64,000 nt of DNA from CAVSKL01 sp963728475 [NCBI: Candidatus Eiseniibacteriota bacterium] (lineage in GTDB: Bacteria > Eisenbacteria > RBG-16-71-46 > JABDJR01), in contig CAVSKL010000001.1 in the NCBI GenBank assembly GCA_963728475.1, positions 496,001-560,000 of the forward strand, given 5' to 3'. Below are positions 714-56,364 of this stretch, in pieces; the stretch's first letter is position 1; each line of letters begins with the position of its first letter. The notes under the pieces are model-generated. The model was not told where the DNA came from. It was given only the letters and a program-made list of their open reading frames with translations, and made no database searches. The position numbers and the translations under genes are program-made.

Positions 714-1535
714 ATGAGACGTGTTCTACTCGTAGGTTTCACCGCGGTGGCGGTCTTCGCCACGACATCGCCGGCTTCGGCCAAGCTCCAGTCCCAGCGG
801 CACGCGAAGATTGGGCTCCAGGCCAAGTCGCACACCGTCAAGTCGTCCACCCTGTGCACCACCTGGTCCCCCGAGGCCATCGGCACCTTCCCGCAGTCCT
901 ACAATACGGCCTCCCCGACCGGCCTGGCCCAGGACGTGTACCTGATGGTCATGCAGGCGCCCGACACCACGCTCGCTATCGCGGCGTTGTCCTGCGGCAT
1001 CGTGTACAACAACAACTCCAGCAACTCGAGGTACTGCGGCTCTCCCGGCCAGGTGCCGCCCGCCTCGGACGCTTACGGGGTGGACGTCTTCGGGTGGACG
1101 CTGTGCACCACCGGTCTCGAATTCACCAACGGGTGCGACCTGAACAACGCCAACACCGAGTGGCCGGAATCGGGCGGCGGCAACCGGATCACCTGGTACG
1201 CGGTCCCCGGCCAGTGCGGTGAGAACGTCATCCAGGGTAAGATCACTGTGTCCGCCGGCGCGTTCTACCTGTACGCCTACGACCAGGACTTCTTCGCCAT
1301 CAGCCCCAACAACAACCTGTTGTCGGGCCCGGGCGAGTTCCAGGTCGCCGACTGCACCGCCGCGATCACCGACCTTTCCTGGCCGAAGAGCGCCGGTTAC
1401 GTCTGGTTCTCGCCGGGCGCAACCATCCAGGGGTGCAACCCCGCGACCGCGCCCACCGACACCCTGGACGGCTCGTGCGACACCGTCCCGGTGAAGAACG
1501 TCGCGACCTGGGGCAAGATCAAGCAGATGTATTGA
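714..1535 (+). CDS. secreted Cys-rich protein with C-terminal TWGKIKQMY tail
   Basis: Not a family I recognise. A strong GAGGAGGAGGG ribosome site sits 6 bases before ATG 714. Residues 1-23 form a signal peptide (ASPASA-type cleavage site). The mature part, about 250 residues, is rich in Asn, Thr, Gly and aromatic residues, with at least ten cysteines, consistent with a disulfide-bonded beta-rich extracytoplasmic protein. The last 18 residues run from a Cys to TWGKIKQMY. The same arrangement ends two other secreted proteins in this window (minus-strand genes ending at 6596 and 55795). No enzymatic motif is visible. The next gene starts 15 bases downstream, so they may be co-transcribed although the products look unrelated. 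Confidence 0.75.
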   Translation: MRRVLLVGFTAVAVFATTSPASAKLQSQRHAKIGLQAKSHTVKSSTLCTTWSPEAIGTFPQSYNTASPTGLAQDVYLMVMQAPDTTLAIAALSCGIVYNNNSSNSRYCGSPGQVPPASDAYGVDVFGWTLCTTGLEFTNGCDLNNANTEWPESGGGNRITWYAVPGQCGENVIQGKITVSAGAFYLYAYDQDFFAISPNNNLLSGPGEFQVADCTAAITDLSWPKSAGYVWFSPGATIQGCNPATAPTDTLDGSCDTVPVKNVATWGKIKQMY

Positions 1536-2841: not shown

Positions 2842-5598
2842 TCAGCGCAGCCGGACCATCCGCAGCGTCTTAAGGTAGCCGCCCGCCCGCATCCGGTAGA
2901 AGTAGATGCCGGGTGCGGTCTCCTCGCCGTTCGCAGCCCGCCCGTCCCACTCCATCCCCAGGATCCCGGCTCCGGCGTGGCCGGTGAACCGTCGCACCAC
3001 CCGGCCGGCCAGGTCGTACACGGTGAGGTCGTAGTCCGACTCGCGCGGCATGGCGAACTCGATCCGGGTCGTTCCCTGGAATGGGTTGGGCCGGTTCTGG
3101 GCCAGCAGAAACCGGGCGGGGAGGCCGGATCCGCCGACCCCGGTGGTCGCGTCCTGGTAGAGGAATCCTCCGGGGAGGACGGTGGTCACGCTGTCCACGC
3201 TCACCGCCACGTCCACCAGCCCGGTGTCGGGAGCGGCGGGAAGGGTGCAGGTCAGCACCGTCTGGCTCAACACGGTCAGGTCCGAGGCCTCGGCGCCGCC
3301 CACGGTGACCGACCGGGCCACGCCGGAGCCCTCCGTCCCGAAGTTCTGGCCCTGGATGGTGAGATGTACGCCGCCGTAGGTCGGACCCGAGCCGGGGGTC
3401 ACCGCGGCGACCTGGGGCGGGTCGAGGTAGGTGAAGGCATCCGGGTAGACGAAAGCGTTCGGAGGGGTGGCCACGCCGACCAGCAGCCCGACGTAGATGG
3501 CCCCTCCGCCCCCGCCGCCACTCCCGTAGGAGCGGCAGACGATGGATCCGGGGGCCGAGCAGAGCACAGTGGCGGTGTCGCCGTCCATGGTGACCAGCGG
3601 CGAGAGCCCGAAATTGGACCCCTGGATGGTGAGGAGGGTGCCGCCGGAGACCCGGCCTTCCGAGGGGCTGACCGAGGCGATGGCCGGATCAAGGGCGGCG
3701 TCGTAGGTCAGGCCGAGATGGTTGGACCGGAGGTCCCCGGCGCGGACCACCAGCACCCCCCCACCTCCGCCGCCGCCGCCGTGGCCGGGCGGAAGCACGC
3801 AATCTTCCTGGTCGGGAATCTCGCCGTTCTTGAACGTCTCGTAGCCGTCCACCCGGACGCTGGCCCCGGGGGGGAAGTTGCTCCCGCTGATGGTGAGTAC
3901 CGTCCCTCCCGAGATCGACACCGAGCTGGGGCTGATCGAGCTGATCACCGGCCCGGAGAAAGACATGAGGGACGAGCCGGTCCCGCCTCCCGAACCGGTC
4001 ACGCTCACCTCCTTGCTGGAGGAGAGCTGGTCCGGGGGGATGTTGCACACGATCTGGGTCCGGGAACTCGTGAGCGGCTCCACCGCGTCGGCACCCACCA
4101 GCACCTGGGGCGAGGCGGGGAAGTAGCCGGAAATGGTGATCACCGTCCCCCCGGCATGGTCGCCGGAAGAGGGGGAAATGCCGGTCAGGGACGGCGCCTC
4201 GTAGTCCAGGGACGCGGAGGACGAGGCCAGCCCGTCCACTTCCACCCCCAGCGGCATCGAGGTCCCGGCGCCGGCGTCGGGGGCGACGAAGGTGAGCTGG
4301 GTGTCGGACGAGGTGGCCGGAGTCAGGTTTCCGCTCGATCCGAAGTACACCGAGGGGCTGCCCGCTCCGGTGGGATTGAAGTTCGCACCGCTGACGGTGA
4401 CCAGCACTCCGCCTCGCACCGGGCCCCCCGAGGTCACCGAGGCGATGGCCGGCGGGGAGGAACCCGGCACCTTGGGGTCGTAGGTGAGGGCGGAATGGAG
4501 AGTGTCGTCGACACCGTCCACGCGCACGACCACGTCCACCGAGACCACCGCGGCCGGGTCGGGGCTGGGGGGCGCGGTGATGCGAAGCGCCTCGGGCGCC
4601 ATCCAGCGCACCGGGCCCACGCCGCTGGTGTCGGCCTTGGCCTGGCGGGTGAGGGCGTCGTCATCGGGCCCGAAATTCTCACCGTTGATGGTGATGACGG
4701 TCCCGCCCCCGGGGGAGGCGGTGGCGGGGGAGATGCCGGAGATCGAGGGGGGCGAGAGATAGCTGAAGACGGCGGGTGGAGAGGCCAGCCCCCCGCTCAC
4801 CACCACCAGGTCCTGGTCGCCCGCGGCACCGGGAGGCGCGACCACCACCATGCGGGACGACGAGGAGGAGACCACCGGCGCGGCCTGGCCGCCTACCAGG
4901 CACGCCGCGCCCTGCCCGAAGTTCTCGCCGACAATGGTGATGTGGGTACCACCGGCGGCCCGGCCCGCAGCGGGGCTCACCGAAACCACCAGCGGGCCCT
5001 GGTCGTAGGAGAAATCGGCGGTGTTGGAGGACAGGCCGGTGGAGGCGACGAGCGCGATCAACCCCCCGCCACCCCCGCCGCCGTAGCTCGCACCACGAGT
5101 GCCGGCGCTCCGCGGCGCCAGGCAGACCACCTGCGTGTCGGAGCTGCCGAGGATCGGGGCCTCGGCCACGCCGAAATAGACCTTGGGGGAGCTGCCGAAG
5201 CTCGACCCGGAAATGGTGATGGAGATGCCGCCGGTCTGGGGGCAGCTTGAGGGGGTCACCGAGCTGATCCACGGCCCCTCGTAGTCGTAGCTTACCGCGC
5301 TGCTGCTCCCGTCCCCGTTTAGCACCCGGACCGAGGCCGGCCCCGAGGCGCTGGAGGGCGGGGTGTCCACCACCAGGGTGGTGTCGTCGGCGAAGAGGGT
5401 CGGCGCGAACCGGCCGCCCACGAAGGCGCGCGGCGCGCAGCCGAAGTTCGACCCGCGGATGGTGAGAATCATGCCGCCCCCGCGCTGGCCGGCGCTCGGC
5501 TCGATGCCGGTCACCGAGGGCACGGCGGCATGAGCGATTTGAGGGACGGCGAGGGTCGCGAGTAGAAATACGGAGGAGGGCAAGGCATGCAAACGCAT
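2842..5598 (-). CDS. secreted nine-IPT/TIG-repeat protein with FlgD-like C-terminal Ig domain
   Basis: 918 residues. A signal peptide (residues 1-24, ending IAHA) is followed by nine IPT/TIG Ig-like repeats of about 80-90 residues. Each has the pattern I-x-x-[IV]-x-P-x-x-G ... GGT-x-[IL]-T-I-x-G-x-N-F. The last ~90 residues are a FlgD/type IX-like domain (RPNPFQGTTRIEF, VYDLAGRVVRRF, GIYFYRMRAGG). Three repeats carry long glycine runs (7 or 8 consecutive Gly) in the same loop. Likely a cell-surface or secreted adhesin or structural protein exported via Sec and then a C-terminal-domain pathway. GGAG lies 9 bases before ATG 5598. A candidate promoter with an overlapping inverted repeat is just upstream. 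It is convergent with the PLP enzyme; the ~100-base gap holds nothing clear. Confidence 0.85.
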   Translation of the reverse strand: MRLHALPSSVFLLATLAVPQIAHAAVPSVTGIEPSAGQRGGGMILTIRGSNFGCAPRAFVGGRFAPTLFADDTTLVVDTPPSSASGPASVRVLNGDGSSSAVSYDYEGPWISSVTPSSCPQTGGISITISGSSFGSSPKVYFGVAEAPILGSSDTQVVCLAPRSAGTRGASYGGGGGGGLIALVASTGLSSNTADFSYDQGPLVVSVSPAAGRAAGGTHITIVGENFGQGAACLVGGQAAPVVSSSSSRMVVVAPPGAAGDQDLVVVSGGLASPPAVFSYLSPPSISGISPATASPGGGTVITINGENFGPDDDALTRQAKADTSGVGPVRWMAPEALRITAPPSPDPAAVVSVDVVVRVDGVDDTLHSALTYDPKVPGSSPPAIASVTSGGPVRGGVLVTVSGANFNPTGAGSPSVYFGSSGNLTPATSSDTQLTFVAPDAGAGTSMPLGVEVDGLASSSASLDYEAPSLTGISPSSGDHAGGTVITISGYFPASPQVLVGADAVEPLTSSRTQIVCNIPPDQLSSSKEVSVTGSGGGTGSSLMSFSGPVISSISPSSVSISGGTVLTISGSNFPPGASVRVDGYETFKNGEIPDQEDCVLPPGHGGGGGGGGVLVVRAGDLRSNHLGLTYDAALDPAIASVSPSEGRVSGGTLLTIQGSNFGLSPLVTMDGDTATVLCSAPGSIVCRSYGSGGGGGGAIYVGLLVGVATPPNAFVYPDAFTYLDPPQVAAVTPGSGPTYGGVHLTIQGQNFGTEGSGVARSVTVGGAEASDLTVLSQTVLTCTLPAAPDTGLVDVAVSVDSVTTVLPGGFLYQDATTGVGGSGLPARFLLAQNRPNPFQGTTRIEFAMPRESDYDLTVYDLAGRVVRRFTGHAGAGILGMEWDGRAANGEETAPGIYFYRMRAGGYLKTLRMVRLR

Positions 5599-6595: not shown

Positions 6596-7309
6596 TCAGT
6601 GATAAAGGGACTTCAGGAGCCCGAACGTGGCCGGCCTGGTGGGGACGGTGCAATCGGTGATGTCGATCGTCACCGAGTAGATCACCCCGCTCACCACGAA
6701 GGCGGCATCGCGGTTGTACACCTGCAGCTGGTTCGCGCCGCAGTGGATGAGGGACGAAACGTCGATCCCGCCGGCGGTGTTGGGTACGGCGTAGCTGCCC
6801 GCGGTGATGCTCGGGCTCACCGGAACTCCGTTGATGTAGACGCCGTCGAGATTCGGGCCGCCGTAGATTCCGTCGCCGAGGGCGTCGTCGGTCGCCCAGC
6901 AGAACGTCATGGTGGCGGAATGAATGCAGCAGGTCGCCACGTCGAAGGTCTGGCAGTAGAGCGCGGAGGCCGGCGTGCCCACGGGATCGGTGCCGATCCA
7001 CTGGGCCAGAGGATCACAGGGAAGCTGCTGCAGCCAGGCCGGGTAGGCGGGGATGACCAGGGCAGGGCGGCCGCCGCACGCCGCGGCAAAGTCCGAGGGG
7101 CCGAACAGGAGCGGGGAGAGGGGCGTTCCCCCGGTCCCCACCAGCATGTTGATCTGCGGGTCGGGGTTGCCCTGAGGCGCGTTCCCGCTCCGCAGGACGA
7201 CGACTTCCGCGGCCGCCGCCGGGCTCACGCCGGCGGTCGCGATCACGCAGGAACTCAAGGCCAGGGCGACCGCAAGGGCACGAACCGCACCGAGACGGAT
7301 CTCTATCAT
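6596..7309 (-). CDS. secreted protein with C-terminal TFGLLKSLYH tail
   Basis: Start chosen at ATG 7309 because AGAGGTGA lies 7 bases upstream and the reading then begins directly with a signal peptide (MIEIRLGAVRALAV ... SPAAAA). Longer in-frame starts would add 45 residues of unlikely sequence. The 237-residue product is beta-rich with paired cysteines and contains AVPNTAGGIDVSSLIH followed by VYNRDAAFVVSG, resembling a carbohydrate-binding or jelly-roll-type fold; no enzyme motif is seen. It ends in CTVPTRPATFGLLKSLYH, matching the tail of the genes ending at 1535 and 55795. A hairpin follows the stop codon and a candidate promoter precedes the start. Confidence 0.7.
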   Translation of the reverse strand: MIEIRLGAVRALAVALALSSCVIATAGVSPAAAAEVVVLRSGNAPQGNPDPQINMLVGTGGTPLSPLLFGPSDFAAACGGRPALVIPAYPAWLQQLPCDPLAQWIGTDPVGTPASALYCQTFDVATCCIHSATMTFCWATDDALGDGIYGGPNLDGVYINGVPVSPSITAGSYAVPNTAGGIDVSSLIHCGANQLQVYNRDAAFVVSGVIYSVTIDITDCTVPTRPATFGLLKSLYH

Positions 7310-7415
7310 GGCCATCACCTCTGTGGTTGGGGACGGGACGGGAAGGAGAGAGGAACGTGGCGTGACCGGAAATGAGTTTTTCAGTGCCTTCCGGCTGGAC
7401 TCATGTCCGGCCGGA

Positions 7416-7444
7416 AGTATGATCGGAAGGATATTCGCGGACAA
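7416..7444 (-). promoter_or_regulatory. candidate promoter for the secreted protein starting at 7309
   Basis: On the minus strand TTGTCC (7439-7444) is 17 bases from CATACT (7416-7421), each one or two changes from consensus. The site lies in a locally A+T-rich patch and would give a leader of about 100 bases. The remaining gap up to 7671 shows no gene. Confidence 0.35.
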
Positions 7445-7671
7445 GTCGAATCGTTTTAAATTTAATGACCATTGCGGGGGTGGACGGAGTGCGGCGGAAG
7501 CGCGGTCCGAACGCCCGATCTCATGACTCCACGGTGACTTAACTCCTCTGTCCCGCTCCAGAGTGCTCCCGGTGGTCCTCTTTTCGCTGGCCGATCGAGC
7601 CGCGCTGGGATACCGTCTTCTACACCTGTCGTTGGAACGCCCCTCCGTCCAACCCCCGGAATGGAGGCCCC

Positions 7672-8652
7672 ATGCCCCGCCCGTACCCGGTCGCTCTGGT
7701 CCTCGCCCTGACCGCGCTCGTCCTGCTCACCACCGCCGCCTCGGCGCAACAGGTGGCGGACTCGAGCTTCGTGAGCCACCTCGACCATCCCGCGTACCCG
7801 CCGGGCCGGGGCCCGCTGATCCTGATCGACGGAGGCCACCACGAGTTTCACACCGCCGGCGGGCGGTACTGGCCCTTCGCGCAGCTGCTCCGGACCGACG
7901 GCTACCGGGTGCGGGGCTCGGACGGTCCCGTCAACGCGGCCTCGCTCCGGGGCTCGGGCCTTCTCGTCATCGCCAACGCCCAGGCGGCGGCCAACGTGGG
8001 CGGGGCGGACTGGGTGCTCCCGGTGGAGGCGGCCTTCGACTCGGCCGAGGTGGCCGCGGTGGCCCAATGGGTGCGGGAGGGCGGTGCGCTTCTCCTCATC
8101 GCCGACCACATGCCCTTCCCCGGGGCGGTGGAGGACCTGGCCGCCGCCTTCGGCTTCCACCTGATGGACGGGTTCCTGGCCGCGGGCCCGGCCCTCTCCG
8201 AGATGGACTTCGACTTCGCCCGCCCCGGCGCCCACGCCCCCGAAACCGCCTACGTGGCCGGCACCCTCGCCGACCACCCGATCACTCGAGGCGCCGGCAA
8301 GGACCAGGACATCCCCTTCGTCCGCGCCTTCACCGGCGAGGCGTTCCGCATTCCCAAGGACGCGGTGAGCCTCTACACCGTCCGGGCCCCCGCCGCCGTC
8401 CTCTTTCCCACCGTAGCCTGGGAGTTCTCCAAGCTCACCCCCAACACGTCGGCGGAGGGTCTCTCCCAGGGAGCGGTGCGGGAATTCGGGAAGGGGAAGG
8501 TGGCGGTATTCGGCGAGGCCGCGGAGTTCACCGCCCAGCTCGCCGGCCCCAACCGGATCCCGATCGGCATGAATGACCCCTCCGCCCCCTACAACAGGCA
8601 GTTCGTGCTCAACCTGGTGCACTGGCTCACGGGAGCGTCCCCCGGGAAGTGA
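7672..8652 (+). CDS. secreted GATase1-like (type 1 glutamine amidotransferase-fold) protein
   Basis: ATG 7672 follows GGAGGCCCC directly. Residues 1-25 form a signal peptide ending ASAQQ. The 326-residue protein resembles the DUF4350/GATase1-like class: an early strand with DGGHHEFHTAGGRY, then LLRTDGYRV, LLVIANAQ, WVREGGALLLIADHMPFPGA, and a final GKGKVAVFGEAAEFTAQ segment with a C-terminal LNLVHWLTG helix. This looks like an extracytoplasmic Rossmann-like domain; I see no classical Cys-His-Glu amidase triad, so binding rather than glutaminase activity is more likely. It is convergent with the esterase gene, with 34 bases between stop codons. Confidence 0.65.
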   Translation: MPRPYPVALVLALTALVLLTTAASAQQVADSSFVSHLDHPAYPPGRGPLILIDGGHHEFHTAGGRYWPFAQLLRTDGYRVRGSDGPVNAASLRGSGLLVIANAQAAANVGGADWVLPVEAAFDSAEVAAVAQWVREGGALLLIADHMPFPGAVEDLAAAFGFHLMDGFLAAGPALSEMDFDFARPGAHAPETAYVAGTLADHPITRGAGKDQDIPFVRAFTGEAFRIPKDAVSLYTVRAPAAVLFPTVAWEFSKLTPNTSAEGLSQGAVREFGKGKVAVFGEAAEFTAQLAGPNRIPIGMNDPSAPYNRQFVLNLVHWLTGASPGK

Positions 8653-8686
8653 TGTCCCGCCGGACGCCCCCGGAGGCGAAGGACGC

Positions 8687-10072
8687 CTACCGCTCGACCA
8701 GGTCCCGGAACTCCGGCGAGCGCACGATCGCCTCCACCGCCCGGACGAACGAGGGGTTCAACCACCAGCCGGGGCCGGCGGGCGCCGCCGGTCCCCCGGT
8801 GGTCCGGAGCCGCATGACCGAGGCCAGGTTCACCGGCGGGATCTCCGCCCCGTAGGCCAGGTTGATCACCCGGATGAACTCGTCGGCCACGATCGCCTGG
8901 CCCATGTCCGCGGGATGGAAGCCGTCCAGGCTGAACACGCCGCCGGTCAGGAAGTCGGGGGCGAGGTGGACTCCCCCCACCTCGATTCCGGTGGCATTGA
9001 GTTCCCGCAGGAGCCCGTTCACGTCGGCCACCGGAATGCCGTGGCTCGCCGCGAAGCCGGTGATGGACTGGTTCAGGGCATCCACCCGGGCTTGGATCTC
9101 GGCGGTCTCGGCCTGGGTCAGGATCACGCTTCCGGGGAGAGGCTCCCCGTTCGCCCCCGGGATTCCCGGCGGCAGGCCGTAGCCCTGGAGCATGAGCGGC
9201 ACCGCCTGGAGGGTGACGAAGTCCCCGGCCCCGGAAGCGCCGGGGAGCGCCAGCGGTCCGTCCGGTCCGATCAAAGGCACCAGCCGCCCGCCCACCAGAA
9301 TCGGCTGCTGGGTCACGGGGTTCACCACGAAGGGCGGCACCGTGGTCACGAACGGGATCGCGGTCACGTCGGGGACGTTGGCCAGCGCCAGCTTGGGCGA
9401 GGAAGGCAGCGCCAACAACCTGCTCACGAGCGTATCGAAGTCGGCGGTGAACGCGTCCACCGGGGTCATCAGCGCGGGATCGCCGCCCAGCGCCGCGCCC
9501 AGGACGTCGTTGGGGCCGATCCACAGCACGACGAAGGTGGGGGCCAGTTCCGATGCGAGCTGCAGCATCGTCCCCTGCCCGCGCAGCACCAGGTCGTAGT
9601 AGGGATTGCTGTCTTTGTGCACCGCGGTCAGGACGTCGTGCACGTTGGCGCCGGGAACGGCCAGGGCGTTGTAGACCGCGGGGTACGCGGTGTTGACCGG
9701 TGCGCCCGGGTTGTCGATGGGTTCGATGTCCGGCGGAAAGAGCTGGAACAGGTCCACCGTCCCCGGCGAACCGGGATCGGCGTAGCCCGGGATCACGTAG
9801 TCCCCGGGCCGGGCCGCGTCCACCCCGCTCGAAAGGATTTCCTTTCCCACCTGCCCGGCCAGGAGCGCGGCATACGAACGCCGCTGGTGCGACTCGGCCA
9901 GTCCGTTGTTCTGGTATCCGGCGGTCAGGCTGTTCCCCAGCGCCGCCATGACGCTGAAGTCGGCGCTTCCGGTCTTCGGCGCCGGCGCCTGGATGGGATC
10001 GATCTTGGCGCAACCCGCGGCCGCGAGAAGGGCCAGCGCCGCGGTCATCGATAGGCTCACGTGCTTCCGCAT
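8687..10072 (-). CDS. SGNH/GDSL-family esterase lipoprotein
   Basis: Start ATG 10072 is set by AGGAGG 7 bases upstream and by the lipoprotein signal that follows directly (LLAAAGC, lipidated Cys21). The 461-residue product has SGNH blocks: block I as GNSLTAGY (Ser48, with Asn replacing the usual Asp of GDSL), block III IGPNDV, and block V DGFHPAD (catalytic Asp and His). A long insertion of low-complexity Pro/Gly/Val sequence lies between blocks III and V. Probably a membrane-anchored lipase or esterase. It is 13 bases downstream of a FadL-type barrel gene and in the same direction as an acyl-CoA ligase, suggesting release, uptake and activation of fatty acids. Confidence 0.85.
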   Translation of the reverse strand: MRKHVSLSMTAALALLAAAGCAKIDPIQAPAPKTGSADFSVMAALGNSLTAGYQNNGLAESHQRRSYAALLAGQVGKEILSSGVDAARPGDYVIPGYADPGSPGTVDLFQLFPPDIEPIDNPGAPVNTAYPAVYNALAVPGANVHDVLTAVHKDSNPYYDLVLRGQGTMLQLASELAPTFVVLWIGPNDVLGAALGGDPALMTPVDAFTADFDTLVSRLLALPSSPKLALANVPDVTAIPFVTTVPPFVVNPVTQQPILVGGRLVPLIGPDGPLALPGASGAGDFVTLQAVPLMLQGYGLPPGIPGANGEPLPGSVILTQAETAEIQARVDALNQSITGFAASHGIPVADVNGLLRELNATGIEVGGVHLAPDFLTGGVFSLDGFHPADMGQAIVADEFIRVINLAYGAEIPPVNLASVMRLRTTGGPAAPAGPGWWLNPSFVRAVEAIVRSPEFRDLVER

Positions 10073-10085
10073 CGCCGTCCTCCTT

Positions 10086-11375
10086 TCAGTACCGGTAGCC
10101 CAGGGACAGCCCCAGAATCTGAACCCCGTTGGCATACGTTCCGTCGAAACCGTCCCGGCTCCGCCCCCCGGTGCTCCGGTCGGAAACGAGGAGGAGCATC
10201 CCGAACGCGTCCGCGGTGAGCCGGTTCCAGGACTTGCCGATCCCAAGGCTCAGTCCGTTCCGGTTGTTGTCGGGAAGAAGGGGGCTCACCGCCTCCGTCG
10301 GTTGCGGGGTCTGGTCGTAGTAATAGCCCACCCTGAGCTTCAGGTCCGACCGCACCGAGGCCTCGGCGCCGATGCGATAGAACCAGGCGTCTTTCCAGTT
10401 CTCCGCGAAGGCAAGATCCAACGTGGGGTCGGCGAAGTGGATGGGAAGAGTCCTGAACGAAGACCACTGGGTCCAGCCGATGTCGGCCTCCAGGACCAGC
10501 TTGTCCGAGGGCGCGAAGGAGACCGCTCCCACCGCGCTGGCCGGGAAGTCGATCTCGGTGGAGACGGCCTGGTCCGGGGGAAAGAGCGGTTCGAGCTGCG
10601 GGTCCAGCGCGGTGCCGGTCCCGGTGAAGGTGAAGTTCGCGTCGCCGTCGTACTTGACCTTCACCCGGGTCCGGTAGGTGGCCCCCAGCGTCACCTTGTC
10701 CCCCACGTCCACCTGCGCCCCGAAGTTGCCGCCGAAGTCCAGGCCGTTGTTCGCGTTGAGCTTGGCGGTGCCCAGGTCCAGCACCTGGGTGGAGTCCATG
10801 CCCGCGCGGGGATCGGGCTGGGCGATGTCCCGGCGGAGCTCCAGGCTGGAGTGCACGGCCAGGAGCCCGGCCCCCAGCCGGAGCCAGGGCGCGGCCTTGA
10901 TCGCCACCGCGGGGTTGAAGAAGAAGGGAGTGATCGACGCCTTGGTGGAGATGAACTTTCCCGGGAAGTCGTAGGGGTCGTTCCACTCGGTGGTGAGCCC
11001 GAAGGGGCTGTAGACCCCGAGCCCCACCGTGATCCGGGAGGCCAGGCGCTGCGCCCAGTACAGGTGGAAGGGAGAGAAGACCGAATTCGGCGACTTCCCG
11101 TGGGAGCCGTATCCGGGATACGGGTTGACCCCGGCGAACTCCCGGGAGACGAAGAGGAGGCTCGCCCCGGCGTAAAGGTCGCCGTGCTCCACTTGGGCCA
11201 GCCCCGCGGGGTTGAAGAACACCGCGGAAGCGTCCCCCACCCGCGCGGTATAGGCGCCGGCGATTCCCAGAGCGCGGCCTCCCTGCTCGTACAGACCAAA
11301 CCCGGCTCCCCGGGCCGCGGCCGGCGCCATGGCCAGGGCCGCCGCCGCCAGGAGCAATATGCACTTCCTTCCCAT
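10086..11375 (-). CDS. FadL/OMPP1-family outer-membrane long-chain fatty-acid transporter
   Basis: 429 residues with a signal peptide (1-23, AAARGA). The mature N-terminus GFGLYEQGGRALGIAGAYTA ... DASAVFFNPAGLA is the hatch hallmark of the OMPP1/FadL/TodX family. The rest shows alternating beta-strand patterning and ends in an aromatic residue (LGLSLGYRY), as expected for BAM-assembled barrels. It imports hydrophobic substrates, probably fatty acids, across the outer membrane. The upstream neighbour is a long-chain acyl-CoA ligase (42-base gap) and the downstream neighbour an SGNH esterase lipoprotein (13-base gap). All three read leftwards and probably form one operon. Confidence 0.9.
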   Translation of the reverse strand: MGRKCILLLAAAALAMAPAAARGAGFGLYEQGGRALGIAGAYTARVGDASAVFFNPAGLAQVEHGDLYAGASLLFVSREFAGVNPYPGYGSHGKSPNSVFSPFHLYWAQRLASRITVGLGVYSPFGLTTEWNDPYDFPGKFISTKASITPFFFNPAVAIKAAPWLRLGAGLLAVHSSLELRRDIAQPDPRAGMDSTQVLDLGTAKLNANNGLDFGGNFGAQVDVGDKVTLGATYRTRVKVKYDGDANFTFTGTGTALDPQLEPLFPPDQAVSTEIDFPASAVGAVSFAPSDKLVLEADIGWTQWSSFRTLPIHFADPTLDLAFAENWKDAWFYRIGAEASVRSDLKLRVGYYYDQTPQPTEAVSPLLPDNNRNGLSLGIGKSWNRLTADAFGMLLLVSDRSTGGRSRDGFDGTYANGVQILGLSLGYRY

Positions 11376-17420: not shown

Positions 17421-17906
17421 ATGCTGTCCAGACGTATCCTCGCCGCGGGCGCCGTGTGCGCCGGGCTCATCCTGGCCTCGCCCGCCTTCGCCTTCACCCT
17501 CCACGGGATCGGGGGCAAGGCCGGGGTGACCGACCCCGAGAACGGCGACATGACCCCGGTAGGGAGCATCCACTTGGAGTTCGAGCAGGGAGGTACCCGC
17601 TGGCACATGTTGCCGTCGGTGCGCTTCTGGAGCGAGAACGGCGTCAGCGACGTGAACCCCAACCTGGACTTCTACTACCACTTCATGCCTCCGGGCGCGA
17701 TCACCCCTTATCTGGGAGCGGGCGTGGGCGTGCACGCCTACTCGGTGGACCATGGCGAGAACAACACCGATCTGGGAGCCAACGTCTTCGGCGGCCTCCG
17801 GTTCCCGGCCAGCCACGTGCACTTCTTCGCCGAGGCGCGCTACGCCGCCACCGACCTCTCGCAGTTCGACCTGGTCGGCGGCATCACCTTCCACTTCCAC
17901 GAGTAG
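17421..17906 (+). CDS. small outer-membrane beta-barrel protein
   Basis: 161 residues with AAGGAGG 6 bases before ATG 17421. A signal peptide (1-24, SPAFA) is followed by alternating strands: GIGGKAGVTDPENGDMTPVGSIHLEF, MLPSVRFW, NPNLDFYYHF, ITPYLGAGVGVHAYS, ANVFGGLRF, HFFAEARYAATDLSQ and a final FDLVGGITFHFHE. This matches the eight-strand OmpA/OmpW-like porin-fold class often annotated outer membrane beta-barrel. The short hydrophilic C-terminus (FHFHE) is slightly atypical of the aromatic last residue. Same general fold class as the gene at 35655-36314. A perfect 22-bp palindrome follows the stop. Confidence 0.75.
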   Translation: MLSRRILAAGAVCAGLILASPAFAFTLHGIGGKAGVTDPENGDMTPVGSIHLEFEQGGTRWHMLPSVRFWSENGVSDVNPNLDFYYHFMPPGAITPYLGAGVGVHAYSVDHGENNTDLGANVFGGLRFPASHVHFFAEARYAATDLSQFDLVGGITFHFHE

Positions 17907-17933
17907 CGCCGGACCGACCGAACCCCGCGCGAG

Positions 17934-17955
17934 GGCCCGCTCCCGGGAGCGGGCC
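17934..17955 (+). terminator. 22-bp perfect palindrome, probable terminator of the barrel gene
   Basis: GGCCCGCTCC joined to its own complement forms an unbroken palindrome 27 bases past the stop at 17906. It is followed by TTCGCCG, so a weak U-run. The next gene begins 100 bases on. Confidence 0.5.
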
Positions 17956-18054
17956 TTCGCCGTTTCCGGGCTCCCCGCATGCAACCGAGGCCTCGGCCCG
18001 GGTGTCCCACCCTCCGGAACCCCCGTCCCGAGCGTCCCCCAGAAAGGAGTCCCC

Positions 18055-19572
18055 GTGCCCGCTCGAGCCGCCCTCGCGCTTCTCTGTGCGCTCGCCGCCC
18101 TTCCCGCCGCCGTGCGCGCGGCCCCCGCCCCGGAGCCGATCGACGCCTGCCCCGGGCTGGACGGCCTCTCCGCCCGCTGGAGCGCGATCATGGATCTCTT
18201 CGACACCCCCGGGATGGCGGTGGCGGTGGTCCGCGACGGCACGATCTACGCCCGAGGATTCGGGATCCGCGACCCCGGGAGCGGCGCGCCGGTCACCCCG
18301 GAGACCCTGTTCTACGTCGCCTCCATCACCAAGACCTATGTGGCGGGGGGGATCGAGAAGCTGGCCGGGGAGGGGAAGCTGTCCCTGGACCAGCCGGTGG
18401 CCTCGCTTCTCCCCCGCTTCCGGCTTCCCGATTCCACCCTGACCCGCACCATCACCGTGCGCGACCTCATGGACCATCACTACGGAATCACCAGCGAGCC
18501 CATCGTGCTGCTGGACGCCTACACCGGCGGCATCACCGAGGACCGCTACTACCGGTGGCTGGGCATGGCCCGGGTGGCGGGTTCGCTCCGCTACTCCAAC
18601 GTCCACTTCACGCTCCTGGGCCGCGTGATCCAGGCGGTCTCGGGGGAACCGTGGCGGGACTACCTGTCGCGCGAGGTATTCGCCCCCGCCGGCCTCGACC
18701 GGACGACCGGCTACATGAGCACGGTGGACGCCGACCCCGACCACGCCGTCCCCTGCCGGAAGGTGGACGGGGCGTGGCTCCCCGAGACCCAGCGCAAGAC
18801 CGACCGCACCATGCACGCGGCGGGGGGGCTGGCCACCAACGCGGTGGAGGGTGCGCGCTGGCTGCTCCTGAACCTGGGGGACGGGACGGTGGACGGGGTG
18901 CGGGTGCTCCCCGGGCCGCTGGTCGAGGCGAGCCGCGAGGTGCAGGCCGGGTTCGAGAAGCCCGAGGGGAGCATCCGGATCATGGAGGGTTACGGCCTGG
19001 CCTGGATGACCGGGACCTTCAACGGCCACCGGCTCCTGCAGCACGGAGGCGGCTACGCGGGAACCTCGGCCTACATGGCGATGCTCCCCGACGACGGGAT
19101 GGGGGTGGTGGTGCTCATGAACGCCGCCGGGGCCGCCCGGGGCCTGGGGGACATCGTGGCCATCGACGTCCTGGAGCGGCTGACCGGCACCACCTCGGCC
19201 TGGAACGTGTACGACACCTACACCGCGAAGATGCGGAAGGAGCGGGAGAAGCACCCGGCCGCGCCCGCGCCGGCTCCGGCGGCCGCCTTCTCCGGGAGCG
19301 CGATCTCCCGCCCCGCCGGGCTCTACACCGGCGAGTTCCACAATCCCGACTGGGGGACGCTGGTGATCGAGCGCGACGGCGCCGCCCTCACCGCCCGGCT
19401 CGGAGACGCGCCGGTGGAACTCCGGCCCTCCGCCGACGGTCCGGACCGCTTCATCGCCGGGGGCCTCTTCGAGTCCGGGGTGGCGGGAGCGTTCCTGGTG
19501 GGCGCGAACGGGGGGGTGGACTCGGTCCGGATCGAGTACCCGGACCTCGGGGAGATCGTGTTCCGCCGGTAG
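18055..19572 (+). CDS. serine beta-lactamase-fold hydrolase (class C/esterase family), secreted
   Basis: Start GTG 18055 is chosen because AAGGAG lies 5 bases upstream and a signal peptide follows (ARAALALLCALAALPAAVRA). The 505-residue product has the class C beta-lactamase/PBP4* motifs: SITK (catalytic Ser-x-x-Lys) around residue 90, YSN (Tyr-x-Asn) at ~182, and HGGGYAG (His-x-Gly) near 330. A C-terminal lipocalin-like or DUF3471-like domain begins at RPAGLYTGEFHNPDWG. Family members are D-aminopeptidases, esterases or peptidoglycan carboxypeptidases; true beta-lactamase activity is not implied. Periplasmic or secreted. It ends 31 bases from the convergent atpC stop. Confidence 0.85.
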   Translation: MPARAALALLCALAALPAAVRAAPAPEPIDACPGLDGLSARWSAIMDLFDTPGMAVAVVRDGTIYARGFGIRDPGSGAPVTPETLFYVASITKTYVAGGIEKLAGEGKLSLDQPVASLLPRFRLPDSTLTRTITVRDLMDHHYGITSEPIVLLDAYTGGITEDRYYRWLGMARVAGSLRYSNVHFTLLGRVIQAVSGEPWRDYLSREVFAPAGLDRTTGYMSTVDADPDHAVPCRKVDGAWLPETQRKTDRTMHAAGGLATNAVEGARWLLLNLGDGTVDGVRVLPGPLVEASREVQAGFEKPEGSIRIMEGYGLAWMTGTFNGHRLLQHGGGYAGTSAYMAMLPDDGMGVVVLMNAAGAARGLGDIVAIDVLERLTGTTSAWNVYDTYTAKMRKEREKHPAAPAPAPAAAFSGSAISRPAGLYTGEFHNPDWGTLVIERDGAALTARLGDAPVELRPSADGPDRFIAGGLFESGVAGAFLVGANGGVDSVRIEYPDLGEIVFRR

Positions 19573-38632: not shown

Positions 38633-38746
38633 ACCGGCGATGAGCCAACGGCTTGGGGGACAACCGATTCGCTGAGCGCGGACCTCGCCGGAGGCCGCAT
38701 AGTTCGGGCCGTCTATCTGGGACAACCACCCACAAGGAAGACGGCC

Positions 38747-41855: not shown

Positions 41856-41942
41856 TTCCGAGCGAAGCCGGCCACCGTTCCGAGGGAAGGCGCCCACCGT
41901 TCCGAGGGAAGGCGCCCACCGTTCCGAACGAAGCCGCCCACC
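41811..41942 (+). repeat. IS21 left-end repeat array
   Basis: Five clear copies of a ~21-base motif beginning TTCCGA and ending CACC at 41811-41831, 41856-41876, 41878-41898, 41900-41920 and 41922-41942, with two identical adjacent copies. Probably IstA binding sites. The same motif occurs inverted at the right end. Confidence 0.8.
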
Positions 41943-42015
41943 CCGGTTCGGGGGTGGCGGCGCGGGGTAACCGGGCTACGCTGAGCCTTTCTCTCATCCC
42001 AGAGGAGGACCCCGC

Positions 42016-49661: not shown

Positions 49662-52088
49662 ATGCGTCCACTTACCCATGGGCTCGCGGCGGCCGTGGCC
49701 GCCGTCCTGGCCCTCGCCGCCGCCCCCGCCGCGCGGGCGGCCTGGCCCCCCGACCCGGCTGTGAACTTCCCCATCTGCACCTCCGCCAACGACCAGTCCG
49801 CCCCGGTGGCGGTCTCCGACGGCGCCGGCGGCGCCATCGTGGCCTGGACCGACGACCGGAACGGGGCCGGCGCCGCCGACATCTACGCCCAGCGGCTCGA
49901 CGCGCTGGGAAACGAAGTTTGGACCCCCGGCGGGATAGCGATCCGCACCGGCGGCGGCCACCAGTACGGGGTGGCCATCGCCACCGACGACGCCGGCGGC
50001 GCCTTCATCGCCTGGTCCGACAACAGCAACGGCGCCGGGGACCAGGACCTCTGGATGCAGCACGTGACCGCCTCCGGCACGCTCCTCTATCCCTCCATCG
50101 GCTACGAATACGGCGGGGGTAGCGGTGACCAGACCAACCCGGCGCTGGCCCCCGACGGGAACGGCAACGTCATCATCGTCTGGACCGACACCCGCACCTC
50201 GGCCACCCCCGACATCTACGCCCAGCTCGTCTATTCGGGGGGCACTCCGCAGTGGGGACTCTGGGGCGTTCCCATTTGCACCGCGTCCAACACCCAGTTC
50301 ACCAACCGGATCGCCCCGGACGGGGCGGGCGGCGCGGTGATCTGCTGGCTGGACCTGCGCGGATCCGACGAGGACGTGTATGCCCAGCGGGTGGACGGCG
50401 CCGGCACCGTCCTCTGGGCCGCGAACGGCGTGGCCGTGACCACCGCGGTCAACGAGCAGATCGAACCCCAGATCGTCTCCGACGGCGTGGGCGGCGCGAT
50501 CATCGTCTGGACCGACAACCGGAACGCCAACTACGACATCTACGGCCAGCACCTGGACGCGCGGGGCTACCCCTTCTGGGGCATCAGCCAGCTCGCGATC
50601 TGCACCAACGCCCAGGCCCAGGACCAGCCCGCCGCGGTCTCGGACGGGGCCGGCGGCGCCGTGGTGTGCTGGCGCGACCAGCGCGCGACCAACGCCGCCA
50701 TCTACGGGCAGCGCGTGACCGGCGGGGGCGCTTTCCTCTGGGATCCCACCGGGCTCGCGGTGCACTACACCACGTTCAGCGACGCCGCCTCCCCCGCGGT
50801 GGTCTCCGACGGGGGCGTGGGGGGGGTGGCCGCCTGGCAGGAGACCGCGCCCGGCGGCTACGACGTCTACGCGCAGCGGCCGGTGGGCCCGGGGCAGCGG
50901 GCGTGGCTGGTGTCGGGCGACCTGGCGGTGAGCACCGCCGCCGGCGACCAGACCGCCCCCGCGGTGGTCTCCGACGGCCGGGGCGGCGCCCTGGCGTTCT
51001 GGCCGGACTCCCGGAACGGGAACCTGGACATCTACGGCGAGCGGATCGAGCACCTCGGGCGCCTGGGGAACCCGGAGCCCGCCATCACCTCGATCACCGA
51101 CGTGCCCGCCGACCAGGGCGGCGCGGTGACCGTGGGCTGGACCCCCAGCTACCTGGACATCGTCCCGCCCACGCTCATCGACGACTACCGGGTCTGGCGC
51201 TCGGCTCCACCCCAGGTCCTGGCCGCAGGCGTGCTGGGCCTGGCCGGGCGCACGACCCTGGACCCCGAGGAGGCGGCGGCCACCGGCAAGTTCCTCCTCA
51301 CCCCGCAGTTCGGCCAGAGCTACGCCTGGGAGCTGGCGGGCACGGTGACCGCGGCCGGACCGCCCGCGGAGTACACCTTTACCGCCGCCACCACCTCGGA
51401 CTCGGTGGCGGCGCCCAACCCGCTCACCGCGTTCATGATCCAGGCCCGCACCGGCACCGGACAGGGCGCGGACAGCTGGTTCTCCTTCCCCGACTCCGGC
51501 TACTCGGTGGACAACCTATCGCCGGCGATGCCGGCACCGCTCACCGGCACCTACGACGCGGGGGTGGCCCGGCTCCACTGGAATCCGAACCTCGAGACCG
51601 ACCTGGCCGGCTATCGCATCTACCGCGACGTCTCGGCGAATTTCACGCCCGGCCCAGGGAACTTCCTCGACGCCAAGACCGACACCGGCTACGTGGACAA
51701 CGCGGGGAGCGCCTACTTCTACCGGGTGACCGCGGTGGACATTCACGGCAACGAATCCCCCGCCGCCGCCTGGCCGGGCGACGCGGGCGCGGTGCCCGAC
51801 TCGCGGGTCACCGCGTACCGCCTCGAGGCCCCGGTCCCCAACCCGGCCCGGAGCGCGACCGCGCTCGTCTTCACCCTTCCCGAAGAAGGAAACGCTCGGC
51901 TGGAGATCTTCGACATGTCCGGCCGGCGGGTGAAGCTCCTGTTCGAGGGCGCGGTGACCGCCGGGCAGCACCTGGAGAATTTCCGCCTCGCCGACGACGC
52001 CGGGCGCCCGCTGGCCAGTGGCGTCTACATGGTGCGGCTCGTAACCGACGCGCGTGCGCTCACCCGGCGCCTGGTGGTGGTGCGCTAG
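49662..52088 (+). CDS. secreted repeat protein with FN3-like and FlgD-like C-terminal domains (copy 1)
   Basis: 808 residues, signal peptide 1-26 (AARA). About eight repeats of ~50 residues with a core DGAGGAIVAWTDDRNG followed by DIYAQRLDALG, a propeller-like series. Then an FN3-like segment (VTVGWTPSYLDIVPPTLIDDYRVWRS ... RLHWNPNLETDLAGYRIYRD) and a C-terminal domain PVPNPARSATALVFTLPEEGNARLEIFDMSGRRV ending LTRRLVVVR. Expected to be exported and surface-attached through the FlgD/type IX-like tail. Its stop is 2 bases before the next paralogue, so the two are translationally coupled. Confidence 0.85.
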   Translation: MRPLTHGLAAAVAAVLALAAAPAARAAWPPDPAVNFPICTSANDQSAPVAVSDGAGGAIVAWTDDRNGAGAADIYAQRLDALGNEVWTPGGIAIRTGGGHQYGVAIATDDAGGAFIAWSDNSNGAGDQDLWMQHVTASGTLLYPSIGYEYGGGSGDQTNPALAPDGNGNVIIVWTDTRTSATPDIYAQLVYSGGTPQWGLWGVPICTASNTQFTNRIAPDGAGGAVICWLDLRGSDEDVYAQRVDGAGTVLWAANGVAVTTAVNEQIEPQIVSDGVGGAIIVWTDNRNANYDIYGQHLDARGYPFWGISQLAICTNAQAQDQPAAVSDGAGGAVVCWRDQRATNAAIYGQRVTGGGAFLWDPTGLAVHYTTFSDAASPAVVSDGGVGGVAAWQETAPGGYDVYAQRPVGPGQRAWLVSGDLAVSTAAGDQTAPAVVSDGRGGALAFWPDSRNGNLDIYGERIEHLGRLGNPEPAITSITDVPADQGGAVTVGWTPSYLDIVPPTLIDDYRVWRSAPPQVLAAGVLGLAGRTTLDPEEAAATGKFLLTPQFGQSYAWELAGTVTAAGPPAEYTFTAATTSDSVAAPNPLTAFMIQARTGTGQGADSWFSFPDSGYSVDNLSPAMPAPLTGTYDAGVARLHWNPNLETDLAGYRIYRDVSANFTPGPGNFLDAKTDTGYVDNAGSAYFYRVTAVDIHGNESPAAAWPGDAGAVPDSRVTAYRLEAPVPNPARSATALVFTLPEEGNARLEIFDMSGRRVKLLFEGAVTAGQHLENFRLADDAGRPLASGVYMVRLVTDARALTRRLVVVR

Positions 52089-55120: not shown

Positions 55121-55121
55121 C

Positions 55122-55814
55122 GTGAGGCACGCTTCCACCGGCGCCGGGAGGCCCCGGCGCCGGTGGATCGAGCGCTGGCTCTACCTGGTGGGGGCGGGGC
55201 TGATCGGCTACGTGATCCTCTCCCGGGTGGACGCGGCGATGTTCAACGCCCGGGCCAAGGCCGTGCTGGCGCACATGGCCTCCGACGGCGCCGAAGCTCG
55301 TCCGAGCCCCAAACCGGGGGACCTGCTGGGACGGATCGACATCGCCCGGATCGGCGTCTCCGCGGCCATCGTGGAAGGGGTCAGCTCGGGCGACCTGTCC
55401 AAAGCGGTGGGGCACATCCCCGGAACCGCCCTGCCGGGCGGGAACCGGAACGGGAACGTGGCCCTGGCCGGGCACCGCGACACCTATTTCCGCGGGCTCC
55501 GGGACATCCGGACCGACGACACCGTCACCGTCGCCACCCCGCGCGGCTCCTTCTGCTACGCCGTCGACTCCACCTGGGTGGTGGAACCCGAGGAGGTGGA
55601 CGTGCTCGAACCGGGCAAGGGGCCGGAACTCACCCTGGTCACCTGCTATCCCTTCCACTTCATCGGGCACGCCCCCAAACGATTCGTGGTTCGGGCGCGG
55701 CAGATCGGGCGGGACCCGGCGGAGGAGTCCCGGGCCGGGAAGGAAAAAGGCCGGATCCATGCCGGATCCGGCCTCTCCCCCACGAATGCCGCCGCTAGCG
55801 ATACATCGCCTTGA
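55122..55814 (+). CDS. class D-like sortase
   Basis: 230 residues, GTG 55122. N-terminal membrane helix (WLYLVGAGLIGYVILSRV) followed by a sortase beta-barrel: LLGRIDIARIGVSAAIVEG, GHIPGTALPGG, NVALAGHRDTYFRGL (catalytic His), TLVTCYPF (catalytic Cys) and FVVRARQ (Arg). All three catalytic residues are present. Single-gene partner of the LPRTA protein upstream; with only one visible substrate it may attach it to the periplasmic side or cell surface. The C-terminal ~35 residues (EEKGRIHAGSG...) overlap a terminator of the opposite strand. Confidence 0.9.
   Translation: MRHASTGAGRPRRRWIERWLYLVGAGLIGYVILSRVDAAMFNARAKAVLAHMASDGAEARPSPKPGDLLGRIDIARIGVSAAIVEGVSSGDLSKAVGHIPGTALPGGNRNGNVALAGHRDTYFRGLRDIRTDDTVTVATPRGSFCYAVDSTWVVEPEEVDVLEPGKGPELTLVTCYPFHFIGHAPKRFVVRARQIGRDPAEESRAGKEKGRIHAGSGLSPTNAAASDTSP
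55749..55773 (-). terminator. Rho-independent terminator of the secreted gene ending at 55795, inside the sortase 3' end
   Basis: Minus strand: stem GGCCGGATCC (55764-55773 and 55749-55758) with a 5-base loop, followed by TTTTT. It lies within the coding 3' end of the sortase on the plus strand. Confidence 0.8.
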
Positions 55815-56364
55815 GCCGCCCCCAGGTGTTGGGCAGGGTCGGCGTGTTGCAGACCCCGGGGTCGGAACTCGTCCGGGTGCCGGTCTCGGTGATGTTGAAG
55901 CAGGAGTCCTCGGCGCCGAAGCAGTCCCCCGAGTAGGTGATGTTAAAGGTGCCGGTGCTGGTGAAGCTGTTCCCGGTCACGCTCCCGCTCACGTCGTAGC
56001 TGAAGGTGGCGGTGCATCCCGCGATCACGTCCTGGGTGCCGCTACAGGTGACGTGGAAGCTCGTCGCGTCCACCTGGACGTTGCAGGAGACGGTGGAGTC
56101 GCCCGGCGCAATGCTCTGGTCCACGCACAGGGTGTCGACCAGGGTGGCGTCGTAGAAGGTGGCGCCGGAGGTGCAGTCGGTTTCCACGGTGTGGATGGAC
56201 CACACCCCGACCCACGCCGACGGCAGGTTGGTGTCGGCCGCGGTCAGGATCTGATTCAGCGTGGGCGGGTGAGGGGGAGTGATGGCGGCGGCGGAACCCG
56301 CGCACGCGGCCGCGGCCGCCAGGAGCGCGGTGACGCTCAGGGAACGGATTAAGAAGGATCGCAT
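55795..56364 (-). CDS. secreted Cys-rich protein with C-terminal TWGRLKAMYR tail
   Basis: 189 residues, GGAGGG upstream of ATG 56364. Signal peptide 1-27 (ACAGSAAA). The mature part is rich in Thr, Ser, Asp and Cys (eight or more cysteines), predicted beta-sheet, no recognised family. It ends CNTPTLPNTWGRLKAMYR, the third case of the shared tail in this window. Strong terminator downstream. Its stop overlaps the sortase 3' end by 20 bases (convergent). Confidence 0.75.
   Translation of the reverse strand: MRSFLIRSLSVTALLAAAAACAGSAAAITPPHPPTLNQILTAADTNLPSAWVGVWSIHTVETDCTSGATFYDATLVDTLCVDQSIAPGDSTVSCNVQVDATSFHVTCSGTQDVIAGCTATFSYDVSGSVTGNSFTSTGTFNITYSGDCFGAEDSCFNITETGTRTSSDPGVCNTPTLPNTWGRLKAMYR

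What the first reader, a model, noticed from the sequence alone, without database searches (positions are those of the whole stretch)
1500..1535. Shared C-terminal tail (TWGxxKxxY) on three unrelated secreted proteins
The products ending at 1535 (plus), 6596 (minus) and 55795 (minus) have no other visible similarity, yet end CDTVPVKNVATWGKIKQMY, CTVPTRPATFGLLKSLYH and CNTPTLPNTWGRLKAMYR. The common pattern is Cys-x(8-10)-T-[WF]-G-x-[IL]-K-x-[ML]-Y-(R/H). All three have signal peptides and lack the FlgD-like domain seen on the large secreted proteins. A common extreme C-terminus on otherwise different exported proteins is what a sorting or anchoring signal looks like. I know of no named family for it.
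Basis: partly seen in the sequence, partly recalled or inferred. Interest (0 to 1): 0.8.

Follow-up and report, generated by a model that had tools for sequence, protein, structure and literature searches.

The report
Shared C-terminal sorting tail (TWGxIKxLYR)
Dozens of otherwise unrelated exported proteins in several little-known bacterial lineages end in the same ten-residue tail, which takes the place of a known surface-sorting domain and so looks like a new address label whose reader is still unknown.

Summary
In 47 genomes of the window's phylum (Eisenbacteria) the tail pattern occurs 468 times, the reversed pattern 0 times. In fetched stretches 123 of 125 matches end 12 residues or fewer before a stop codon. 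I collected 144 tail ORFs; 129 have a signal peptide by a simple rule, and 128 of these form 56 families by BLASTP. One unnamed phylum has the pattern in 8 of 8 genomes. In 31 of 118 Zixibacteria genomes one small secreted protein carries it; whole-protein identity falls to 29%, the tail is nearly invariant. The tail behaves as an exchangeable sorting signal: among 116 signal-peptide proteins with the tail or a terminal T9SS type-A-like domain none has both, some homologues of tail proteins end in that domain, and two tail proteins belong to NCBI 'choice-of-anchor' families. SprA, the T9SS translocon, is in 28 of 28 further pattern-bearing genomes and 9 of 52 sampled relatives, but does not track the tail within phyla. 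Predicted form: a short helix on a flexible linker.

The parts
714..1535 (+). secreted protein P0001 (273 aa), signal peptide at the N-terminus, no Pfam or NCBIfam match at E<=1
1506..1532 (+). tail core TWGKIKQMY, followed directly by the stop
6596..7315 (-). secreted protein (239 aa from the ATG at 7315; ORF opens at 7444), no Pfam or NCBIfam match at E<=1
6602..6628 (-). tail core TFGLLKSLY, then H and stop: the rare Phe variant
55795..56364 (-). secreted protein P0003 (189 aa), no Pfam or NCBIfam match at E<=1
55801..55827 (-). tail core TWGRLKAMY, then R and stop
2842..5598 (-). large IPT/TIG-repeat secreted protein ending in a T9SS type-A domain (TIGR04183 30.9 bits, cut-off 23; FlgD_ig PF13860 31.0, cut-off 27): the alternative C-terminal module
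49662..52088 (+). large secreted protein ending in a T9SS type-A domain (TIGR04183 40.5 bits, cut-off 23; Pfam PF18962 and PF13860 under their cut-offs)

Best explanation
The tail is a C-terminal sorting signal of about 10 residues (about 16 with its Pro-containing linker). Shown by sequence: the protein carries an N-terminal signal peptide, then any of many mostly extracellular domains, a linker, and the tail at the very end. Inferred: the protein enters the periplasm by Sec; the tail, a short N-capped helix with Trp, Ile/Leu, Leu/Ile and Tyr/Phe on one side and Lys/Arg on the other, is bound there or at the outer membrane by a dedicated receptor, which moves the protein to, or keeps it at, the outer membrane or surface. 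[quoted passage not shown] Confidence that it is a sorting or anchoring signal: about 0.9. That the T9SS is the machine: about 0.5.
For: Enrichment: 468 matches in 47 genomes, reversed control 0. Position: 123 of 125 within 12 residues of the stop. Export: 129 of 144 with a signal peptide by rule; of the 15 without, 11 are cut by a locus edge. In the sampled stretches 67 of 311 signal-peptide genes have the tail against 10 of 495 others, p 3e-20. Modularity: 128 proteins in 56 BLASTP families with many Pfam domains. Exchange: 67 signal-peptide genes have the tail, 49 a terminal type-A-like domain, 0 both, p 5e-6; 9 of 72 proteins with that domain have a body homologous to a tail protein; in L155 three tandem homologues end in the tail, a decayed tail and a FlgD_ig domain. 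Two tail proteins score above cut-off for NCBIfam choice-of-anchor V (97.6 bits, cut-off 42) and A (80.8, cut-off 29). Constraint: 30 of 30 aligned Zixibacteria tails keep T,W,G,I,K,A,L,F; 8 of the 10 invariant columns of A1 are in the tail while mean column identity is 43%. T9SS link: SprA in 28 of 28 further pattern-bearing genomes against 9 of 52 sampled relatives; type-A domains in 47 of 47 Eisenbacteria, 2 of 14 control genomes; an FN3-like tail protein directly after porD in 3 of 7 loci, with a PorV/PorQ-family gene one or two called genes away in 2. Helix.
Against: Nothing here shows transport or binding. SprA does not track the tail within a phylum: 34 of 41 tail-bearing and 5 of 6 tail-less Eisenbacteria have it, and 29 of 31 against 80 of 87 Zixibacteria. 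Seven tail-bearing Eisenbacteria, among them G001, nearest relative of the window by AtpG, show no SprA; they may be incomplete, but completeness is not given. The association across lineages is confounded by kinship, and for 10 of the 28 genomes 'tail-bearing' rests on three or more pattern matches that I could not inspect. T9SS signals in print are folded domains, the shortest 43-55 residues (PMC11969387, passages read). In Zixibacteria the carrier has a neighbour that looks like signalling, not T9SS. PorQ-like proteins are in all 118 Zixibacteria and tell nothing. porD was not near the FN3-like carrier in 3 of 7 loci. In L297/L318 a FlgD_ig-like domain is followed by the tail, so the two can share one protein. 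The helix is low-confidence (pLDDT of the last two blocks of ten: 58 and 65; 48 and 43).
Confidence: 0.55

Rival explanations
1. A separate, unnamed sorting or anchoring system reads the tail and is independent of the T9SS, which merely lives in the same lineages. The receptor could be an outer-membrane or peptidoglycan-bound protein that holds the helix.
For: SprA and the type-A domain are present in tail-less Eisenbacteria too, so something else must decide whether a genome uses the tail. The tail has no fold of its own, unlike the T9SS signals in the passages read. Zixibacteria keep one dedicated carrier, the pattern of a dedicated pair.
Against: 28 of 28 further pattern-bearing genomes have SprA. 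Bodies exchange tail and type-A-like domain. A tail protein sits in a porD or PorV/PorQ neighbourhood in some genomes.
Confidence: 0.3
2. The tail is a non-covalent docking peptide for assembling surface proteins on a scaffold, not a transport signal: proteins leave by another route and are gathered by a scaffold with a helix-binding groove.
For: Short helix on a flexible linker; many different domains; some tail genes lie in tandem (G010:C35; G006:C153).
Against: No scaffold candidate found. Exchange with the type-A-like domain fits a sorting role better.
Confidence: 0.1
3. The tail is a membrane-contact element: an amphipathic helix with Trp, Tyr, Lys and Arg that lies on a membrane surface.
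For: Composition and a modest helical moment (mean rank 0.72 among own shuffles, 144 tails; the same measure for a strand 0.61).
Against: Membrane contact should not need fixed residues, yet eight positions are identical in 30 of 30 Zixibacteria proteins, and the moment is only moderate.
Confidence: 0.05

Closest known systems
T9SS type-A C-terminal domain (TIGR04183 / PF18962, FlgD_ig-like PF13860)
   Same: C-terminal, on Sec-exported proteins of many folds, tens of copies in one genome, same genomes and some of the same body families.
   Different: A folded beta-sandwich, usually more than 70 residues (43-55 in the shortest reported; PMC11969387, passages read); the tail is about 10 residues, predicted helical, and matched neither model in the tail proteins scanned.
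T9SS type-B C-terminal domain (TIGR04131) with PorP/SprF shuttles
   Same: A second class of signal read by its own shuttles (PMC12618676, abstract and passages read), the closest model for a further class.
   Different: Longer than type A and predicted to hold a beta-sheet (same passages). TIGR04131 was not among the 19 NCBIfam families found in 53 tail-protein representatives.
PEP-CTERM/exosortase, GlyGly-CTERM/rhombosortase, MYXO-CTERM/myxosortase
   Same: Many-to-one C-terminal tags on different exported proteins; bodies of two tail proteins resemble families named for such tags (ScyF, MXAN_6652; under their cut-offs).
   Different: Those tags have three parts: motif, hydrophobic stretch, basic end (GlyGly-CTERM: start of the abstract of PMC6219818 in the listing; MYXO-CTERM: 'tripartite' in the cut abstract of PMC11980579, same listing; PEP-CTERM: recalled). 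The tail has no such hydrophobic stretch.
NCBIfam choice-of-anchor V and A families
   Same: Two tail proteins score above the curated cut-offs; these domains are named for occurring with varied C-terminal anchors (meaning of the name recalled).
   Different: They are body domains; the tail is the anchor-like part.

Membership tests
T9SS type-A sorting domain (TIGR04183/PF18962) | profile match at the C-terminus | tested here: not met
   P0001-P0003: 0 matches in NCBIfam and Pfam at E<=1; neither model among the families found for 53 representatives at E<=0.01: all 19 NCBIfam families seen, 25 of 29 Pfam families seen
T9SS type-A sorting domain (TIGR04183/PF18962) | folded beta domain of 43 to more than 70 residues | tested here: not met
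   models of two families give a short helix after a flexible linker (low pLDDT there)
T9SS substrate in the wide sense | genome encodes the SprA translocon | tested here: inconclusive
   34 of 41 tail-bearing Eisenbacteria, 29 of 31 tail-bearing Zixibacteria, 28 of 28 further pattern-bearing genomes against 9 of 52 sampled relatives; not discriminating within phyla
T9SS substrate in the wide sense | secretion depends on SprA and a shuttle | not testable with these tools
   needs mutants
CTERM tags read by exosortase, rhombosortase or myxosortase | C-terminal hydrophobic (transmembrane) stretch and basic end | tested here: not met
   column counts of 144 tails show a Pro/Thr-rich linker plus TWGxIKxLYR in the last ~20 residues; no separate hydropathy scan of the tail was run
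LPXTG sortase substrates | LPxTG-like motif, hydrophobic stretch, basic end | tested here: not met
   not seen in the column counts of 144 tails
Outer-membrane beta-barrel proteins with a C-terminal strand signal | barrel protein whose last strand ends in an aromatic residue | tested here: inconclusive
   the Pfam domains seen are not barrels, but many of the 53 representatives have no Pfam match; tail predicted helical with low confidence

The most novel reading that the evidence does not exclude
TWGxIKxLYR marks an undescribed envelope-sorting pathway shared by several lineages. Eisenbacteria and at least one other phylum spread the tag over dozens of surface proteins, while Zixibacteria and other lineages keep one dedicated carrier. 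Its receptor is unknown, and it stands as an alternative to both the folded T9SS domains and the membrane-anchored CTERM tags.
Probability: 0.4. Interest if true: 0.9.

Novelty: new variant of a known kind. Interest (0 to 1): 0.8.

Why it matters
It adds a class of C-terminal sorting signal that needs neither a folded domain nor a membrane anchor, in phyla known mostly from metagenomes. It gives a sequence rule for finding part of the exported proteome of these bacteria. It also poses a testable question: what reads a ten-residue helix outside the inner membrane, and is it a further signal class of the type IX machine. If the tail alone directs export or surface display, it would be a very small secretion tag.

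Tried and rejected
Chance: rejected (reversed pattern 0 in 47 genomes against 468). One paralogous family: rejected (56 BLASTP families). Internal motif: rejected (2 of 125). SprA as the specific partner: works across lineages, fails within phyla. PorQ as the specific partner: matches at E<=0.001 in 118 of 118 Zixibacteria, none over the curated cut-off, so no information. Neighbours of the Zixibacteria carrier: a 738-759 aa protein is next to or near it in 13 of 14 loci; I read it by eye as a multi-helix sensor with a SpoIIE-type phosphatase, with STAS-, RsbW- and Rex-like genes nearby. No profile was run on these, my gene caller missed genes there, and they suggest signalling, not transport. 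The fold of the Zixibacteria body gave only weak beta-domain matches (best E 5e-3) and no PDB sequence match at E<=0.1. porD was sought in all loci over 3 kb held: found only in the stretches around FN3-like carriers. Helical moment gave only mild support. Literature: (Eisenbacteria with C-terminal sorting, type IX secretion, sorting domain) found 0 papers. Searches showed, by title and start of abstract, none on such a tail, but only the top of each list was seen (20 of 1,721; 3 of 3; 12 of 86; 8 of 20; 10 of 13,281; 6 of 4,183). The library lacks most subscription journals, so this is no proof of novelty.

Full report
WHAT WAS CLAIMED AND FOUND. Three proteins of the window end in a common tail. 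All three are ORFs with the stated ends. They have no Pfam or NCBIfam match at E<=1 and no similarity to each other outside the tail at BLASTP E<1e-3. The window is from Candidatus Eisenbacteria or a close relative: its AtpG matches the MAG SS_bin_28 at 73% identity, other hits at 56% or less. No whole genome is held for the window, so I used the 47 genomes of the phylum of G006, a MAG named Candidatus Eisenbacteria.

IS IT MORE THAN CHANCE. The DNA pattern ACN TKS GGN NNN NTN AAR NNN NTN TWY gave 56 matches in 6 Eisenbacteria genomes and 0 for the reversed pattern; all 56 read TGG, Trp. With Trp fixed it gave 468 matches in 47 genomes, 41 of them positive, reversed control 0 (sum). Of 29 other genomes reached through AtpG loci 9 matched, with 1 match in the control. 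One of the 9, G008, belongs to the phylum of G006; six are Zixibacteria with a C-terminal tail (L201-L206); two look like chance (L199 internal, L200 in a 62-residue ORF); the 15 Firmicutes-type genomes had 0. In the first 30 loci every match ends 3 residues or fewer before a stop. Over all fetched Eisenbacteria stretches 123 of 125 distinct matches end 12 residues or fewer before a stop; the others are L120 (45 residues) and L209 (222). In loci from other lineages 54 of 59 are within 9 residues of a stop, some in very short ORFs that are probably chance.

EXPORT AND MODULARITY. I collected 144 distinct tail ORFs, the three of the window included. 129 have a signal peptide by a simple hydropathy rule of mine. 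Of the 15 without, 11 run off the edge of the fetched stretch and one is masked. Nine of the 129 have a lipobox-like motif. With signal peptide and tail removed, 128 proteins fall into 56 families, the largest of 17 and 16. Scanning 53 family representatives (the three window proteins left out, having been scanned) found 29 Pfam families, 25 shown, all but one in a single member: lamin-tail domain (2 members), NHL, phosphoesterase, CHRD, ice-binding-like adhesin, laminin G, beta helix, PPC, CBMs, C-type lectin, redoxin and others. Each of the 19 NCBIfam models found matched one of the 53. So neither library shows a model for the tail.

CONSENSUS. Over 144 tails: T and P at -6 and -5 (88 and 96), T or S at 0 (130 and 14), Trp (143; one Phe, the window's 6596 protein), G and K (fixed by the collecting pattern), I/L/V, L/I, Y/F (118 and 26), then R (93); 110 end exactly one residue after the Y/F. 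The Phe variant is rare: 5 matches in 47 genomes with 1 in the control, 3 of them C-terminal on signal-peptide proteins.

OTHER LINEAGES. Zixibacteria: a protein search found a match in 49 of 118 genomes, 31 of which run through the tail; the other 18 are weaker hits that stop before it. The carrier is a secreted protein of about 140 residues. In 30 aligned members T,W,G,I,K,A,L,F are identical in 30 of 30, the position after G is K or R (26 and 4) (my script favoured ORFs with a tail-like end when choosing the ORF in each hit locus). Alignment A1 of 29 members has mean column identity 43%, with 8 of 10 invariant columns in the tail; identity to the first member falls to 29%. A search of 385 relatives (the 47 Eisenbacteria included) found 96 with a match; the reversed pattern gave 10 matches over the 385 genomes, none in Eisenbacteria. 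So a lone match outside Eisenbacteria is near background, but several genomes are far above it, for example G253 with 23 and G319 and G393 with 19 each. The phylum of G319 has 8 of 8 genomes with 11-19 matches, control 0. Six further genomes carry an FN3-like secreted protein ending TWGSIKA[ML]FR and G258 a seventh; G398 and G258 have a second pattern match.

THE TAIL REPLACES A KNOWN SORTING DOMAIN. Searching the bodies without tails against the fetched Eisenbacteria loci gave 14 homologues without a strict tail: 5 end in a FlgD_ig / T9SS type-A-like domain, 1 in a truncated one, 5 in a decayed tail, 3 in neither (one masked) (types read by eye). One was checked by profile: FlgD_ig 34.9 bits, cut-off 27; TIGR04183 20.8, just under its cut-off of 23. 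With a profile of the domain built from 15 seeds, 72 proteins of the stretches have it, 69 of them within 12 residues of the C-terminus. Nine of the 72 have a body homologous to a tail protein at E<=1e-6. In L155 tandem homologues end in the tail (7089-7922), a decayed tail (ORF 7886-9400) and a FlgD_ig domain (ORF 9265-10449). Among signal-peptide genes 67 have the tail, 49 the terminal domain, 195 neither, 0 both (p 5e-6); among genes without a called signal peptide 10, 20, 465 and 0. The stretches were chosen around tails, which inflates tail counts but not the overlap. One protein (L297 = L318, G319 phylum) has a FlgD_ig-like domain (22.3 bits, under cut-off 27) followed by the tail; it escapes the test because that domain is not terminal. 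Independently, two tail proteins belong to NCBI 'choice-of-anchor' families above cut-off (L210, V, 97.6 bits against 42; L194, A, 80.8 against 29), and L168 and L210 have matches under cut-off to families named for PEP-CTERM and MYXO-CTERM. The window itself has both kinds: three tails and two proteins above the TIGR04183 cut-off.

LINK TO THE TYPE IX SYSTEM. SprA_N (PF14349) is in 39 of 47 Eisenbacteria: 34 of 41 with tails, 5 of 6 without. In Zixibacteria it is in 109 of 118: 29 of the 31 with the tail protein, 80 of the 87 others. It is in 0 of 14 control genomes. I then tested 80 further genomes: 20 with three or more pattern matches (20 have SprA), 7 with the FN3-like carrier and G289 with one match (8 of 8 have it), and 52 relatives taken at every sixth handle with those positives removed (9 have it at E<=1e-3, 6 over the cut-off). 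These are outside the 47 Eisenbacteria and the 118 Zixibacteria sampled, though a few could be other Zixibacteria. For 10 of the 20 (G209, G253, G283, G288, G305, G356, G393, G419, G422, G440) I could not inspect the matches. Four of the 52 had one match; three of them have SprA, and I did not inspect these matches. Counting them as tail-bearing gives 31 of 32 against 6 of 48 (Fisher p 5e-15; a second, stricter table with 9 of 48 gave 1e-12); kinship makes such p-values too optimistic. The FN3-like carrier lies directly after porD in L309, L310 and L311 and about 6.5 kb from it in L312, but porD was not found in L313, L314 or L315. PorD in L309: PF16119 88.8 bits (cut-off 25); NF052317 90.1, under its cut-off of 170. 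PorV/PorQ-family genes lie one and two called genes away in L310 and L312 (NF033709 91.9 and 98.3 bits, cut-off 90; PorQ model under its cut-off); Pfam had no match for the L310 one. Type-A domains are in 47 of 47 Eisenbacteria, tail-less ones included, and in 2 of 14 control genomes.

STRUCTURE. AlphaFold2 models of the Zixibacteria carrier (mean pLDDT 86.5) and of a 17-member Eisenbacteria family (81.1) each show a confident beta-rich body, a low-confidence linker and a terminal helix over the tail (residues 125-133 and 242-249; last two blocks of ten at pLDDT 58 and 65, and 48 and 43). I take this as a flexible, exposed helix that would fold on binding; that is inference.

MECHANISM. Shown by sequence: export signal, interchangeable C-terminal module, strong constraint on the tail, presence in T9SS-bearing lineages. 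Inferred: recognition outside the inner membrane by a receptor. T9SS signals come in classes read by different shuttles: type A by PorV, type B by PorP/SprF-like proteins (PMC12618676, abstract and passages read). A further class read by another such barrel is the simplest reading that uses all the facts, but nothing here excludes a separate system, and no gene was found whose presence follows the tail within a phylum.

VERDICT. A real, widespread and apparently undescribed C-terminal sorting signal. As a kind (C-terminal sorting tag) it is known; its form (about 10 residues, no fold of its own, no membrane helix) is new to me and matched no model in the libraries searched.

Noticed in passing
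window 54674-55814 (+): A small secreted protein (54674-55120) ending LPRTA + hydrophobic stretch + basic end, followed at once by a sortase-family protein (55122-55814, TIGR01076 75.6 bits, cut-off 39.35; nearest class D, under its cut-off): a likely sortase-substrate pair next to the third tail gene.
   Followed up: partly
window 36611-44351 (+): Mobile cluster: IS66 transposase, a XerC/D-like recombinase (under cut-off), and an IS21 transposase with its helper ATPase.
   Followed up: partly
L201-L206, L246-L259: The Zixibacteria tail protein lies beside genes that I read by eye as STAS, RsbW, Rex and a multi-helix SpoIIE-type phosphatase (738-759 aa, in 13 of 14 loci), hinting at a link to a partner-switch signalling system.
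   Followed up: partly
L297 / L318 9850-10296 (-): Small secreted protein made of a FlgD_ig-like (T9SS-type) domain followed by the TWG tail, in the G319 phylum.
   Followed up: partly
L314, L315: A patatin-like plus Omp85-like protein neighbours the FN3-like tail carrier.
   Followed up: no
window 17752-19572 (+): A 606-aa ORF with a serine beta-lactamase/AmpH-like domain (NF007943 85.8 bits, under its cut-off of 266).
   Followed up: no
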